Of a stretch of 64,000 nucleotides of DNA, positions 39,843 through 42,284 are shown in pieces. Every line of letters starts with the position of its first letter. Within the stretch, counting starts at the first letter, position 1. The DNA comes from Kutzneria buriramensis (GTDB lineage: Bacteria; Actinomycetota; Actinomycetes; Mycobacteriales; Pseudonocardiaceae). The position numbers and the translations under genes were made by a program. The notes beneath the pieces are model-generated. The model was given only the letters and a program-made list of their open reading frames with translations. It did not search any database and was not told the DNA's origin. The DNA is taken from contig NZ_QUNO01000021.1 in assembly GCF_003387475.1 (NCBI RefSeq), positions 171,897 through 235,896 of the forward strand, written 5' to 3'.

Positions 39843-39992
39843 GTGGCAGCGGATCCGATGTGCGAGTGCGGTCATGTGCTCGCTGCGCATGAGCACTACC
39901 GGCCCGGCAACGACTGCGCTTTGTGCTCGTGTGAGCGGTTTCGTGCCGCCGGCGGCTGGTGGGCGCGGCTGCGGAAACTCTTCCGGCGCTGA
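39843..39992 (+). CDS. Small cysteine-rich (zinc-ribbon-like) protein, 49 aa
   Basis: A short ORF from GTG 39843. Five cysteines and several histidines are arranged C-x-C-G-H, then H-x-H-Y-R-P-G-x-D-C-xx-C-x-C, a plausible zinc or metal site. A tryptophan and a strongly basic C-terminal tail follow (RLRKLFRR). A -10 box is correctly placed. The HYRPGxDC pattern looks like that of small conserved actinobacterial proteins of unknown role. No function is claimed. Immediately downstream the G-quadruplex and G/T-rich repeat tract begins. Confidence 0.65.
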   Translation: MAADPMCECGHVLAAHEHYRPGNDCALCSCERFRAAGGWWARLRKLFRR

Positions 39993-40235
39993 GGCGTTTC
40001 GGGGTCGTTCTTGGGGGCGGGGTTTAGTGGGGCGGGGTCGTTGGGATTTTCGGCTGTGTGGTTCTGGGCCGTTTGGTGTGGGGGTGGTTTGGTTCGGGGT
40101 CGTTTGAGGTGCGGGTGATGCGGTTTTTGGGCGGGGGTGCTGCGTGGTTTCGGGGTGGGCGGCGTGGGTTTTAGGGCGGCGCGGTTCGGGTTCGTTTGAG
40201 GCTGGTGGTGGCCCGGTTTTTGGGCGGCGGTGTTC
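39993..40235 (+). repeat. G/T-rich degenerate repeat tract
   Basis: About 240 nt strongly depleted of C and A on the plus strand. Units related to GGTTCGGGGTCGTTTGAGG recur at 40060, 40091 and 40183. CGGTTTTTGGGCGG recurs at 40121 and 40214, a period of 92-93 nt. The last related unit runs into the left arm of the structured element at 40236. No open reading frame looks real here. The 40358-40518 stretch beyond the element shows nothing recognisable. Confidence 0.55.
40013..40037 (+). other. G-quadruplex motif
   Basis: Four runs of at least four G (40013-40017, 40019-40022, 40029-40032, 40034-40037) with loops of 1, 6 and 1 nt: an ideal intramolecular quadruplex sequence on the plus strand. 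Confidence 0.6.
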
Positions 40236-40355
40236 GGGTCGATTTGGTGTGGAGCCTCTGGACGATGGCCTTCGAGGAGCCTTTCCGGGGCAGGTTACGC
40301 CTGCCCCTCGCGCGGAAAGCTTAGGCCATCGTCCACCTCCACACAAAATCGACCC
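40236..40355 (+). repeat. 120-nt structured inverted element, left copy (L)
   Basis: A 120-nt self-complementary element. The outer stem is 19 pairs with one G-A mismatch (40236-40254 with 40337-40355), extendable by two pairs. The middle stem is TGGACGATGGCCT (40259-40271) with its complement at 40323-40335. The inner hairpin is GGGGCAGG-TTACG-CCTGCCCC (40287-40307). About 85% identical to an opposite-orientation copy at 41769-41888 (103 of 121 aligned columns by eye), with three compensatory base-pair changes in the outer stem. It lies 164 nt beyond the stop of the DUF222-HNH gene. Confidence 0.8.
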
Positions 40356-40518
40356 GAGGCGGTGGTTGCAGGTGGTGTGTTGGCGAATTTTCGGTCGCTG
40401 TGGAATTGTCAAGGAACATGGCGCGTGGTGAGGCGGTTGGGAATGGAGTCGGTGCGGTGATCGGTAGTGCGGCGGGATGGATGGCCGGCGGGGCGGAGCC
40501 ATGTGGCCGGTTGGCCGG

Positions 40519-41661
40519 TCAGTATTGGTGGGGTGTGGTGGTGTAGGTGCGGCCGTGTGGGGTGGTCCAGTGCAGGGTGCCGTCGTCGTCGACGGTGACC
40601 TTGTGGGTGTCGTGCTTCAAGTGGTGGTGGCGGGTGCAGAGGCCTTTGACGTTGGCGAGTGTGGTGTGGCCTTTGGGCCACGGCGTGACGTGGTCGCCTT
40701 CCTGAACCGACCGGGTGCAGCCGGGGGCCGAGCAGACGTTGCCGGCGCGGACGCCGACGAGTTCTTTGAGGCGGCGGCCTGGTCGGTAGGTGTGTTTGCC
40801 GATCGCTTCGGCTTGGTCGTGTTCGTCGAGCAGGATCGCCCGCCAGATGCCGTGCATGGCGAGTTCGCGGGCGGTGTCGGCGGAGATGGGGCCGTAGCCC
40901 TCGAGTAGGGCGGGGTCTTCGGTCAACCCCATGAGGGTTTCCATGGAGATGGTGACGTGGACCTGGACATCGCGCTTCCGGACGTTGCCCAGGAAGCGGT
41001 CGAGGAAGGCGTCGGCGCGTTTCTGGTCGGTGGTGCGCTCGTCTGTGGGGAGGTCTTTGGCGTCGGCGCAGAGCAGGTCGTGGACCATGCGGGCGTCGAC
41101 TGCGGGCAGGATGGCGGTGAGGTGGGCCATGCCGTCCGGGCGCGGCCGGATCTCCACGCGACGCTCGGTTTTGGCTTTCTGGTGGCGTTGTTCGTAGCCG
41201 GTGGGGTCGGCTTGCGCGACCAGGGCGGTGGTCCGCCGGCCCAACTGCGAGTGGGTGAGTCCTGGGGCGATGTCGAGCAGGGCGTCTTCGACCTCGGCGA
41301 TGAGCGCCACGGACGGCAGATTGCAGACCCGATCACGGACCGCTTCCAGCCGCCGCAGGTCCAGGCGCCCCTCCCGCAACTGGTCCATCAGGCGGGGCAG
41401 GGTCCGCAGATCCTCGGTCAACACCTTACGCCGGGCCACGGTCTGCTCGGGTTCGGTGATGGCCATCGCCAACTCGGCGGTGTCCTCGACACCCCGCAGC
41501 ACAGTCAACTCCACGTAGTCGGCGAAGGCCCGGATCTTGCGGGCGAGAATGGTGACGGTGACCCGCTCGTCGGCGGAAAGGGCGTCCAGATCGAGGCCCG
41601 CGAGAAGATCGAGCAGGGCCCCGCTGGGCTCCGCTCTCTCCAACTCCCGGGTGAGTTCCAT
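40519..41661 (-). CDS. DUF222 / HNH endonuclease (13E12-repeat type)
   Basis: 380 residues from ATG 41661, chosen because TATTCT lies exactly 7 nt upstream (leaderless). The first 290 residues are the DUF222 helical domain. The C-terminus is an HNH nuclease (about 320-370): GNVCSAPGCTRSVQEGDHV, then Asn in LANVKG and CTRHHHLKHD, with cysteines for a structural zinc. Family members exist in many copies per actinobacterial genome (REP13E12 in Mycobacterium) and behave like selfish DNA, but their mechanism is unknown. Here the intact gene is bracketed by inverted 120-nt structured elements. Confidence 0.9.
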   Translation of the reverse strand: MELTRELERAEPSGALLDLLAGLDLDALSADERVTVTILARKIRAFADYVELTVLRGVEDTAELAMAITEPEQTVARRKVLTEDLRTLPRLMDQLREGRLDLRRLEAVRDRVCNLPSVALIAEVEDALLDIAPGLTHSQLGRRTTALVAQADPTGYEQRHQKAKTERRVEIRPRPDGMAHLTAILPAVDARMVHDLLCADAKDLPTDERTTDQKRADAFLDRFLGNVRKRDVQVHVTISMETLMGLTEDPALLEGYGPISADTARELAMHGIWRAILLDEHDQAEAIGKHTYRPGRRLKELVGVRAGNVCSAPGCTRSVQEGDHVTPWPKGHTTLANVKGLCTRHHHLKHDTHKVTVDDDGTLHWTTPHGRTYTTTPHQY

Positions 41662-41668
41662 ACCTCTA

Positions 41669-41674
41669 AGAATA
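41669..41674 (-). promoter_or_regulatory. -10 box TATTCT of the DUF222-HNH gene
   Basis: Minus-strand TATTCT, 7 nt from ATG 41661. There is no convincing -35. It lies between the right structured element and the gene. Confidence 0.45.
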
Positions 41675-41768
41675 CCGACCTGCAAGATCCAAATCGAATC
41701 CCTAACGGGTGAACTGTTTCATGCATAATCGAGCGATCGGTCGCACAGAACCGCCAACAACACGATAA

Positions 41769-41888
41769 GCGTGGATTTTGCGTGGAGGGGGACGATGGCC
41801 TAAGCTTTACTGCGTGAGGGGCAGGCGTAGCCTGCCCCGGAGATGCCCCTCATGGCCATCGTCCAGAGGCTCCACGCAAAATCCACGC
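41769..41888 (-). repeat. 120-nt structured inverted element, right copy (R)
   Basis: Inverted copy of the element at 40236-40355. The outer stem is a perfect 19 bp (GCGTGGATTTTGCGTGGAG at 41769-41787 with 41870-41888). The middle stem is GGACGATGGCC (41790-41800 with 41854-41864). The inner hairpin is GGGGCAGGC-GTA-GCCTGCCCC (41818-41838). An alternative pairing of TGAGGGGCA (41815-41823) with TGCCCCTCA (41844-41852) competes with the inner hairpin. It sits 107 nt upstream of the HNH gene start. Confidence 0.8.
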
Positions 41889-41951
41889 GACATACACACG
41901 ATAAAACCCGGCAACCGGTCCCAAAGGTTCCATCCCGGGCAACACAACCAC

Positions 41952-42284
41952 TCAAACCGCCGCGATCTGGAAAACGTTCCCGTAAGGATCCCGCACCATC
42001 GCACGCCGCTGCCCGTACGGCGTCTGCGTCGGCTCCTCCAGCACCTCGGCCCCAGCACCCACCGCCCGACCGAACGCCGCATCCGTGTCACCCACGTACA
42101 CATACAGAAACACCGGGAACCGCCCACGGTCAGCAGTCCCGGACACCAGCACCACGCTGTCCCCGATCACCATCTCCGCCGGCCGGTCGCCAACAAACGC
42201 CCCCTCAGCGCCGAAAACCTCACGCAGGAACCGAACCGCGCCAGCAGGATCGTCCACGAACATCCGAGGCAGCACCGTCGCCAT
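41952..42284 (-). CDS. VOC-family (glyoxalase-like) protein
   Basis: 110 residues. Two beta-alpha-beta-beta-beta half-modules of the vicinal-oxygen-chelate fold, with PhnB-like features: MFVDDPAGAVRFLREVFG at the start and the closing YGQRRAMVRDPYGNVFQI. Such proteins are metal-dependent lyases or dioxygenases, or drug-binding resistance proteins. The assignment stops at fold level. It lies 9 nt downstream of the SARP gene on the same strand. Confidence 0.85.
   Translation of the reverse strand: MATVLPRMFVDDPAGAVRFLREVFGAEGAFVGDRPAEMVIGDSVVLVSGTADRGRFPVFLYVYVGDTDAAFGRAVGAGAEVLEEPTQTPYGQRRAMVRDPYGNVFQIAAV

What the first reader, a model, noticed from the sequence alone, without database searches (positions are those of the whole stretch)
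40234..41888. DUF222-HNH endonuclease gene bracketed by inverted 120-nt structured elements with compensatory base changes
L (40236-40355) and R (41769-41888) are both 120 nt, about 85% identical in opposite orientation (103 of 121 aligned columns by eye), and lie on either side of an intact DUF222-HNH gene. Each folds into a three-tier stem. In the outer stem, pairs 40237-40354, 40240-40351 and 40248-40343 are G-C, C-G and T-A in L but C-G, G-C and C-G in R, and a G-A mismatch in L is T-A in R. The structure is therefore conserved, not just the sequence. DUF222-HNH genes are known to be repeated and selfish-like, but I know of no described flanking RNA or DNA structure. This could be a mobile or homing unit whose ends or transcripts are recognised by the nuclease.
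Basis: partly seen in the sequence, partly recalled or inferred. Interest (0 to 1): 0.85.

Follow-up and report, generated by a model that had tools for sequence, protein, structure and literature searches.

The report
Mobile nuclease gene between paired hairpins
In Kutzneria soil bacteria a roughly 2-kb DNA unit, a predicted DNA-cutting (HNH) gene between two inverted hairpin-forming repeats, occurs in chromosomal places that lack it in related species, and it likely spreads by breaking DNA and being copied in during repair.

Summary
In detail: L and R are 120 nt each, 104 of 121 columns identical in inverted orientation, with real compensatory changes. The genome is a Kutzneria. Across 7 Kutzneria genomes a covariance model lists 131 distinct hairpins in 6; 129 lie within 1 kb of a DUF222 gene, all 129 pointing inward. 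One related hairpin lies beside such a gene in another genus. Sites lacking the unit exist in other species for four copies examined, including the window's. Hairpins are usually the best-conserved part; the protein is under purifying selection. At shared sites flanks are 79-89% identical but element genes 63-76%, suggesting that lineages replace each other in place. Occupied flanks carry a strand-specific scar, C lost to T and G on the strand whose 3' end faces the element, as expected from resected breaks; it is strong at two of four sites, and neighbouring-gene orientation is not excluded as its kilobase-scale cause. My reading: a hairpin-bracketed HNH mobile unit spreading by break repair. 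Cleavage, movement and hairpin recognition are untested.

The parts
39989..40235 (+). G/T-rich outer tail on the L side, not present at the corresponding site of G004 (Kutzneria sp. CA-103260)
   Evidence: homology to G004 runs up to window 39988 and resumes at 41962; in G004 3 nt lie between
40236..40355 (+). L hairpin (downstream end of the unit with respect to the gene)
40356..40518 (-). spacer between gene and L hairpin, C/A-rich on the gene strand, variable in length among copies
40519..41661 (-). DUF222-HNH gene, 380 aa
40600..40770 (-). C-terminal HNH-like motif (Cys pair, Asp-His, Asn, Cys, His-His, Lys), about residues 298-353 (boundaries approximate)
   Evidence: Pfam HNH residues about 313-354 at E=0.1, below cut-off
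41662..41768 (-). upstream spacer between R hairpin and gene
41769..41888 (-). R hairpin (upstream end of the unit), inverted relative to L
41889..41961 (+). C/A-rich outer tail on the R side, not present at the G004 site (junction uncertain by several bases)

Best explanation
The locus is one copy of a multicopy insertion unit of Kutzneria, made of hairpin, DUF222-HNH gene and inverted hairpin, which likely spreads when its predicted nuclease breaks DNA and the cell's repair copies the unit into the site or over a resident copy. Shown by the sequences: a unit with two inverted, structure-conserved ends around a single gene; species-specific families of copies; orthologous sites without the unit; different element lineages at the same site in different species; a protein under purifying selection; and a strand-specific loss of C next to the unit. 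Inferred: that the HNH domain cuts DNA; that the hairpins (as extruded DNA hairpins or palindromic duplex) are what the protein binds or cuts; that breaks are resected 5' to 3' so that 3' single strands facing the element collect cytosine damage; and that gene conversion from another copy completes the spread.
For: Unit and ends: in the own genome 7 L-type and 8 R-type hairpins and a 30-nt fragment, around 8 copies of the gene at 87-100% protein identity. Of 131 distinct hairpins listed for 7 genomes, 129 lie within 1 kb of a DUF222 gene (those surroundings are 0.4% of the sequence) and 129 of 129 point inward; of the other two, one sits at a contig start and one beside the N-terminal piece of a gene split by about 3 kb. 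A diverged hairpin with the same polarity lies 324 nt after a DUF222 gene of another genus (46 bits, DNA fold z -6.4). Presence/absence: sites without the unit for 4 copies, A, B, C and the window's. Constraint: within-genome hairpin p-distance 0.005-0.081, gene 0.070-0.148, spacers 0.058-0.253; dN/dS 0.08-0.20 over 50 copies in 6 sets. Replacement: 11 pairs of loci at shared sites, flanks 79-89%, genes 63-76%; genes group by genome, not by site. Scar: C 0.13-0.14 and T 0.33 in the first 25 nt against 0.34 and 0.155 beyond 2.4 kb, on both sides and with neighbouring genes pointing to or away; 67 other intergenic regions show none. Polarised substitutions within 2 kb at sites A-C: C>T plus C>G 395 against G>A plus G>C 110 in occupied lineages, 365 against 591 in empty ones, gone by 3.5-6 kb (89 against 83).
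Against: No cleavage, binding or movement was observed. No target-site duplication was seen. The substitution signal comes mostly from site B (254 against 32) and C (70 against 29), both in one genome; site A, whose gene is frameshifted, is weak (71 against 49), and the window's site is clear only on the R side within 1 kb (23 against 4; 60 against 43 over 0-2 kb). At the strong flanks the neighbouring gene points at the element, so transcription running into it is not excluded as the cause. Rare variants inside the element show no sign switch that would mark a break point. Other DUF222-HNH clades are multicopy without this hairpin (0 of 9 copies of G004 and 0 of 8 of G003 examined match the model), so such genes can multiply without it. 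38 of 87 gene entries lack one or both hairpins. No solved fold matches the models.
Confidence: 0.6

Rival explanations
1. The DUF222-HNH protein acts as a true transposase: it binds the two end hairpins, probably on single-stranded DNA, cuts the unit out and joins it elsewhere, as REP-associated transposases are thought to do.
For: Two inverted palindromic ends of fixed polarity around one gene, with an unpaired conserved stretch on the outer arm of the 34 aligned hairpins; flanks unrelated between most copies.
Against: HNH domains are known to nick or cut, not to join strands (general knowledge, no call); no target-site duplication or fixed target was seen; different lineages at the same site fit conversion better than random insertion.
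Confidence: 0.2
2. The hairpins themselves make the breaks: extruded palindromes are cut by host enzymes such as SbcCD (recalled, no call), and ordinary recombination spreads and homogenises the copies; the gene is a passenger.
For: Long stems next to the scars; the scar has opposite polarity on the two sides of the whole unit.
Against: The listed hairpins are almost never without the gene (129 of 131), and the gene is kept under purifying selection, which a passenger would not need.
Confidence: 0.12
3. The hairpins are transcription terminators or insulators around a resident gene, and transcripts stalled at them expose the coding strand of neighbouring genes to deamination.
For: Copies lie between genes, more often at convergent than divergent pairs (28 against 11 of 77 copies); the strong substitution flanks have genes pointing at the element.
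Against: The skew within about 300 nt is equally strong where the neighbouring gene points away (47 flanks against 72); termination does not explain empty sites, fixed inverted polarity or different lineages at one site.
Confidence: 0.06
4. The hairpins act as RNA, for example as a guide or regulator of the nuclease, as the omega RNA does for IscB.
For: Covarying stems; a very weak profile match of the C-terminus to IscB (E=0.9).
Against: No Rfam match in the window; both ends carry the structure in opposite orientation; in the two long helices 74 cells change on both sides and 4 on one side, as expected for DNA, where G-T is a mismatch.
Confidence: 0.04

Closest known systems
REP-associated tyrosine transposases (RAYT) flanked by two inverted REPs (PMC2817692; abstract and passages seen)
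   Same: One gene between two palindromes in inverted orientation; palindromes preserve their pairing and vary with the protein lineage.
   Different: The protein here is DUF222-HNH, not an IS200/IS605-type transposase; hairpins are about 120 nt (REPs 20-40 bp per the abstract of PMC3733652, seen in the listing) and are hardly ever found without the gene.
Free-standing intergenic HNH homing endonucleases of T4-like phages, mob genes (PMC2988022; passages seen)
   Same: Single HNH genes between conserved genes; spread through break repair with resection and co-conversion.
   Different: The passages seen describe no paired inverted hairpins; here there are up to 27 matching rows in one bacterial genome. 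The cleavage site is unknown here.
13E12 / REP13E12 repeats of Mycobacterium tuberculosis (DUF222-HNH; PMC10589994 and PMC13061034; passages seen)
   Same: Same protein family, multicopy, and among the categories with most detected gene conversion in M. tuberculosis (87 events, Table 1 of PMC13061034).
   Different: The passages seen describe no flanking hairpins; I did not examine M. tuberculosis sequence.
Other DUF222-HNH clades of Kutzneria, other Pseudonocardiaceae and Arthrobacter
   Same: Same protein domain, several copies per genome.
   Different: The hairpin model matches 0 of 17 loci of other clades in G003 and G004, 1 of 12 loci of other Pseudonocardiaceae genera, and 0 of 44 loci outside Kutzneria from the named genome scan, most of them Arthrobacter.

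Membership tests
DUF222 (PF02720) / 13E12 repeat family | PF02720 match above the curated cut-off | tested here: met
   73.7 bits against 24.4
DUF222 (PF02720) / 13E12 repeat family | several copies per genome | tested here: met
   8 rows in G000, 16 in G001, 17 in G002, 27 in G004
RAYT / REP units | gene flanked by two palindromes in inverted orientation | tested here: met
   49 of 87 gene entries have hairpins on both sides, 31 on one, 7 on none; 129 of 129 adjacent hairpins point inward
RAYT / REP units | IS200/IS605-type Y1 transposase domain | tested here: not met
   DUF222 is the only Pfam family above cut-off
RAYT / REP units | palindromes also dispersed in high number without the gene | tested here: not met
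   129 of 131 listed hairpins lie within 1 kb of a DUF222 gene
HNH homing endonuclease | HNH nuclease motif | tested here: inconclusive
   conserved Cys, Asp-His and His-His, but Pfam HNH only E=0.1, no NCBIfam family, no fold match
HNH homing endonuclease | presence and absence at orthologous sites | tested here: met
   four sites
HNH homing endonuclease | cleavage of the empty allele | not testable with these tools
   needs biochemistry
DDE insertion sequence | target-site duplication of fixed length | tested here: inconclusive
   none visible by eye at site A and at the window's site; outer tails have drifted
IscB / OMEGA | RuvC and HNH domains with a structured omega RNA | tested here: not met
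   only DUF222 above cut-off in Pfam; no Rfam match in the window

The most novel reading that the evidence does not exclude
This is a new class of selfish element, a hairpin-bracketed HNH drive: a DUF222 nuclease that recognises long DNA hairpins at its own ends, breaks the chromosome there, and is copied in and over rival copies by repair, leaving on both flanks a kilobase-scale, strand-specific record of exposed 3' single strands that can be read from the genome sequence.
Probability: 0.42. Interest if true: 0.92.

Novelty: new variant of a known kind. Interest (0 to 1): 0.82.

Why it matters
DUF222-HNH genes are multicopy in several Actinobacteria, and as REP13E12 they are gene-conversion hotspots in M. 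tuberculosis, yet their function is unassigned. A clade with sharply defined, covarying ends and sites without the unit gives a substrate to test what the protein does. The one-sided loss of C next to the unit, if caused by break resection, would let recurrent chromosome breakage be mapped from sequence alone.

Tried and rejected
A symmetric palindrome scan of 79 loci found nothing because the stems have asymmetric loops; it was replaced by an outer-stem scan. An RNA role: no Rfam match and few one-sided changes. A pre-existing G/T-rich target as cause of the skew: not supported, at site A the three empty sites are short and not skewed by eye. Neighbour-gene transcription as cause of the short-range skew: not supported by stratification (the ORF caller is unreliable in skewed sequence); for the kilobase-scale asymmetry it stays open. 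A break point located by a sign switch of rare variants inside the element: not seen; the flank rows of that script compare unrelated sequence and were ignored. NCBIfam: no family for 4 proteins. Solved structures: chance-level matches only; the C-terminal model was poor (pLDDT 65.5). A stem scan outside Kutzneria gave scattered low-score stems; the covariance model then found one true relative, in L134, among them, so my first impression that the hairpin is confined to Kutzneria was wrong. Phage records: 7 with distant matches, at most 62% of the query covered. Papers: DUF222 (15 of 15 listed), 13E12 (25 of 43), HNH with palindromes (20 of 163), Kutzneria with transposon (4 of 4), RAYT terms (10 of 19,617), break mutagenesis (10 of 32), combined terms (10 of 19, 4 of 4). 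No listed title or abstract start describes hairpins around DUF222 genes; I saw passages of five papers and the abstract of a sixth, no whole text. The hit in PMC10123090 is DUF2220.

Full report
Check of the observation. L (40236-40355) and R (41769-41888) are present as described: 120 nt each, 104 of 121 columns identical when R is inverted, 84 of 130 in direct orientation. The 124-nt stretches around them fold as DNA and as RNA, on both strands, with z from -9.06 to -11.36 against 200 shuffles each. The window holds no tRNA and no Rfam family above its gathering score.

What it is: a multicopy unit. In the window's own genome (11.97 Mb, 65 contigs) the L sequence finds 23 rows: 7 L-type hairpins, 8 R-type hairpins, one 30-nt fragment and 7 opposite-strand rows of the L-type. 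They surround 8 copies of the same gene, 87-100% identical in protein. One copy is cut by a contig end (C27, and by its position at a contig start probably C15) and one lacks its downstream hairpin. At E up to 1e-60 the gene has 8, 16, 17, 3, 27, 0 and 4 rows in G000, G001, G002, G003, G004, G005 and G006.

Association of hairpin and gene. I aligned 34 hairpins left after removing near-duplicates from 121 found next to genes, all read from outside inwards. With the three-tier structure 96.2% of cells pair and 74 cells change on both sides; sliding the partners by 1-3 columns drops this to 42-48% and 0-11. In the two long helices only 4 cells change on one side, so G-U steps are nearly absent, which fits pairing in DNA. 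The sequences are related, so these counts are not independent events. A covariance model searched against 7 whole genomes gives 267 rows in 6 genomes (none in G005); the listed rows contain 131 distinct hairpins, which with their opposite strands would account for 262 of the 267. Of the 131, 129 lie within 1 kb of a DUF222 gene, where those surroundings are 0.4% of the sequence, and all 129 have the same polarity towards the gene. The other two sit at a contig start and beside the N-terminal piece of a split gene. Of 87 gene entries in that comparison 49 have a hairpin on both sides, 31 on one and 7 on none; four K. viridogrisea genes entered that list because hairpins lay beside them. In K. 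viridogrisea the 10 listed hairpins are all upstream, and four lie beside genes that score like a different DUF222 clade.

Beyond Kutzneria. The model was run on 82 further loci. It matches 7 K. viridogrisea loci and one locus of another genus of the family, L134 from G072: 46 bits, full length, inward polarity, 324 nt after the DUF222 match, folding as DNA with z -6.4. It matches none of the other 11 loci of other Pseudonocardiaceae genera, none of 44 loci outside Kutzneria from the named genome scan (most of them Arthrobacter), and none of 17 loci of other DUF222 clades in G003 and G004 (a chosen part of those clades).

Ends. Beyond the hairpin the copies of G004 share a further 8-10 nt that are inverted between the two ends (about GGNTGGCTC outside the upstream hairpin, GAGCCANCC outside the downstream one), after which flanks diverge. 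An unpaired stretch, mostly CCTCTG, lies on the outer arm of the 34 aligned hairpins; I note it as a candidate contact or cutting site, untested.

Sites without the unit. Site A: occupied in G002, empty in G000, G001 and G003, where 38-51 nt lie between the homologous ends. Site B: occupied in G001, empty in G000, G002 and G003. Site C: occupied in G001, lacking in G002 and G003 (a second unknown insert lies beside it in G001). The window's site: homology to G004 runs up to 39988 and resumes at 41962; in G004 3 nt lie between, in the window 1,973 nt. That G004 locality has other changes: most of the glyoxalase-like gene right of the junction is missing there, and sequence left of the small CxxC ORF differs. 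In these cases the insert is larger than the hairpin-to-hairpin unit: it carries G/T-rich sequence on one side and C/A-rich sequence on the other. Copies lie between genes, 28 of 77 at convergent and 11 at divergent pairs, by a simple ORF caller that is unreliable in skewed sequence.

Different lineages at shared sites. Five sites look occupied in more than one species. Over 11 pairs of loci the flanks are 79-89% identical and the element genes 63-76%; in 3 of the 11 only the left flank could be matched. The protein is under purifying selection (dN/dS 0.08-0.20, 50 copies in 6 within-genome sets). On a tree of 69 gene copies the copies group by genome, not by site; G002 forms two groups and the two G003 rows are long. 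Copies overwritten by other lineages, repeated arrival at the same sites, or old insertions homogenised within each genome would all give this; the first and third need conversion between copies. The two flanks of one G002 copy match two different G000 copies, as recombination between copies would leave.

Constraint. Within six sets of related copies the hairpins differ by 0.005-0.081 per site, the gene by 0.070-0.148, the upstream spacer by 0.058-0.253 and the downstream spacer by 0.074-0.214. In the G000 set the upstream hairpin (0.079) is no better conserved than the gene; two sub-types are visible in the alignment.

The flank scar. Reading each flank towards the element, 70 left and 51 right flanks start at A 0.07-0.09, C 0.13-0.14, G 0.46, T 0.33 and come near genome values over some 300-400 nt; 72 flanks with the next gene pointing at the element and 47 with it pointing away behave alike. 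Sixty-seven other intergenic regions in the same loci show no skew. At sites A, B and C, with the empty species as outgroup, the occupied lineage has C>T 212 and C>G 183 against G>A 45 and G>C 65 within 2 kb, on the strand whose 3' end faces the element; sums are 179 against 114 at 2-3.5 kb, 89 against 83 at 3.5-6 kb and 30 against 55 at 6-9.5 kb. The empty lineages show 365 against 591 within 2 kb, an excess the other way that I do not explain. Per site within 2 kb: A 71 against 49, B 254 against 32, C 70 against 29. The window's site gives 23 against 4 on the R side within 1 kb but 60 against 43 overall. Clustered cytosine changes in resected single strands are known from yeast expressing a deaminase (PMC6786661, abstract seen); C to T together with C to G as their form is general knowledge. 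Limits: four sites, the two strong ones in one genome, and at the strong flanks the neighbouring gene points at the element, so its coding strand is the strand in question. The empty lineages control for coding-strand bias as such but not for transcription changed by the insertion.

Protein. DUF222 is clear. The C-terminus keeps CxxPGC, Asp-His, a late Cys, His-His and Lys across nearly all of 21 sequences including Arthrobacter, the order of an HNH motif as I recall it; four of the other proteins found carry a precomputed Pfam HNH domain (PF01844). Pfam's HNH model gives only E=0.1 here. The full-length model is fair (pLDDT 86.4, pTM 0.74) and matches no solved fold.

Comparison with what is known. 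The anatomy is that of REP-associated transposase genes, described as always flanked by two inverted REPs (PMC2817692), with a different enzyme and much longer ends that are hardly ever found alone. The presumed mode is that of free-standing HNH homing genes of T4-like phages (PMC2988022), with structured ends added. The protein family is that of the 13E12 repeats, which often take part in gene conversion in M. tuberculosis (PMC13061034). I found no description of hairpins around DUF222 genes in the searches named in Tried and rejected, which cover open-licence papers only.

Verdict. A hairpin-bracketed DUF222-HNH unit that has come to sit at different sites in different Kutzneria species is well supported. 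That the nuclease cuts at, or is guided by, the hairpins and spreads by break repair is the best single mechanism, at 0.6.

Noticed in passing
L073, L075, L084 (G002, K. kofuensis): An insertion of about 1.4 kb, 99.9-100% identical among three places and with 30-nt inverted ends (TAATACTACAGCCGCA...), has landed at three copies of the unit: just outside the downstream hairpin in L075 and L084, inside it in L073. It may favour these palindromes.
   Followed up: partly
L224-L232 (G004) and L233-L240 (G003): Other DUF222-HNH clades form their own repeated units of about 1.5 kb without this hairpin; several copies carry an upstream motif containing GTCCGCACCGCGCGGT.
   Followed up: partly
L134:2721-2839 (G072, another genus of the family): A diverged hairpin of the same model beside a DUF222 gene; most further G072 copies of the gene were not fetched.
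   Followed up: partly
G000 L003 and L009 against G002 L085: The left flank of one G002 copy matches one G000 copy and its right flank another, suggesting rearrangement by recombination between copies.
   Followed up: no
L120:1560-2890: A further 1.3-kb segment next to site C is absent from the G003 site and resembles G000:C21:34144-35451 at 72%; not identified.
   Followed up: no
window 39858-39992: A small Cys-rich ORF (44 aa) next to the unit's left junction, also present in Kutzneria sp. CA-103260.
   Followed up: no
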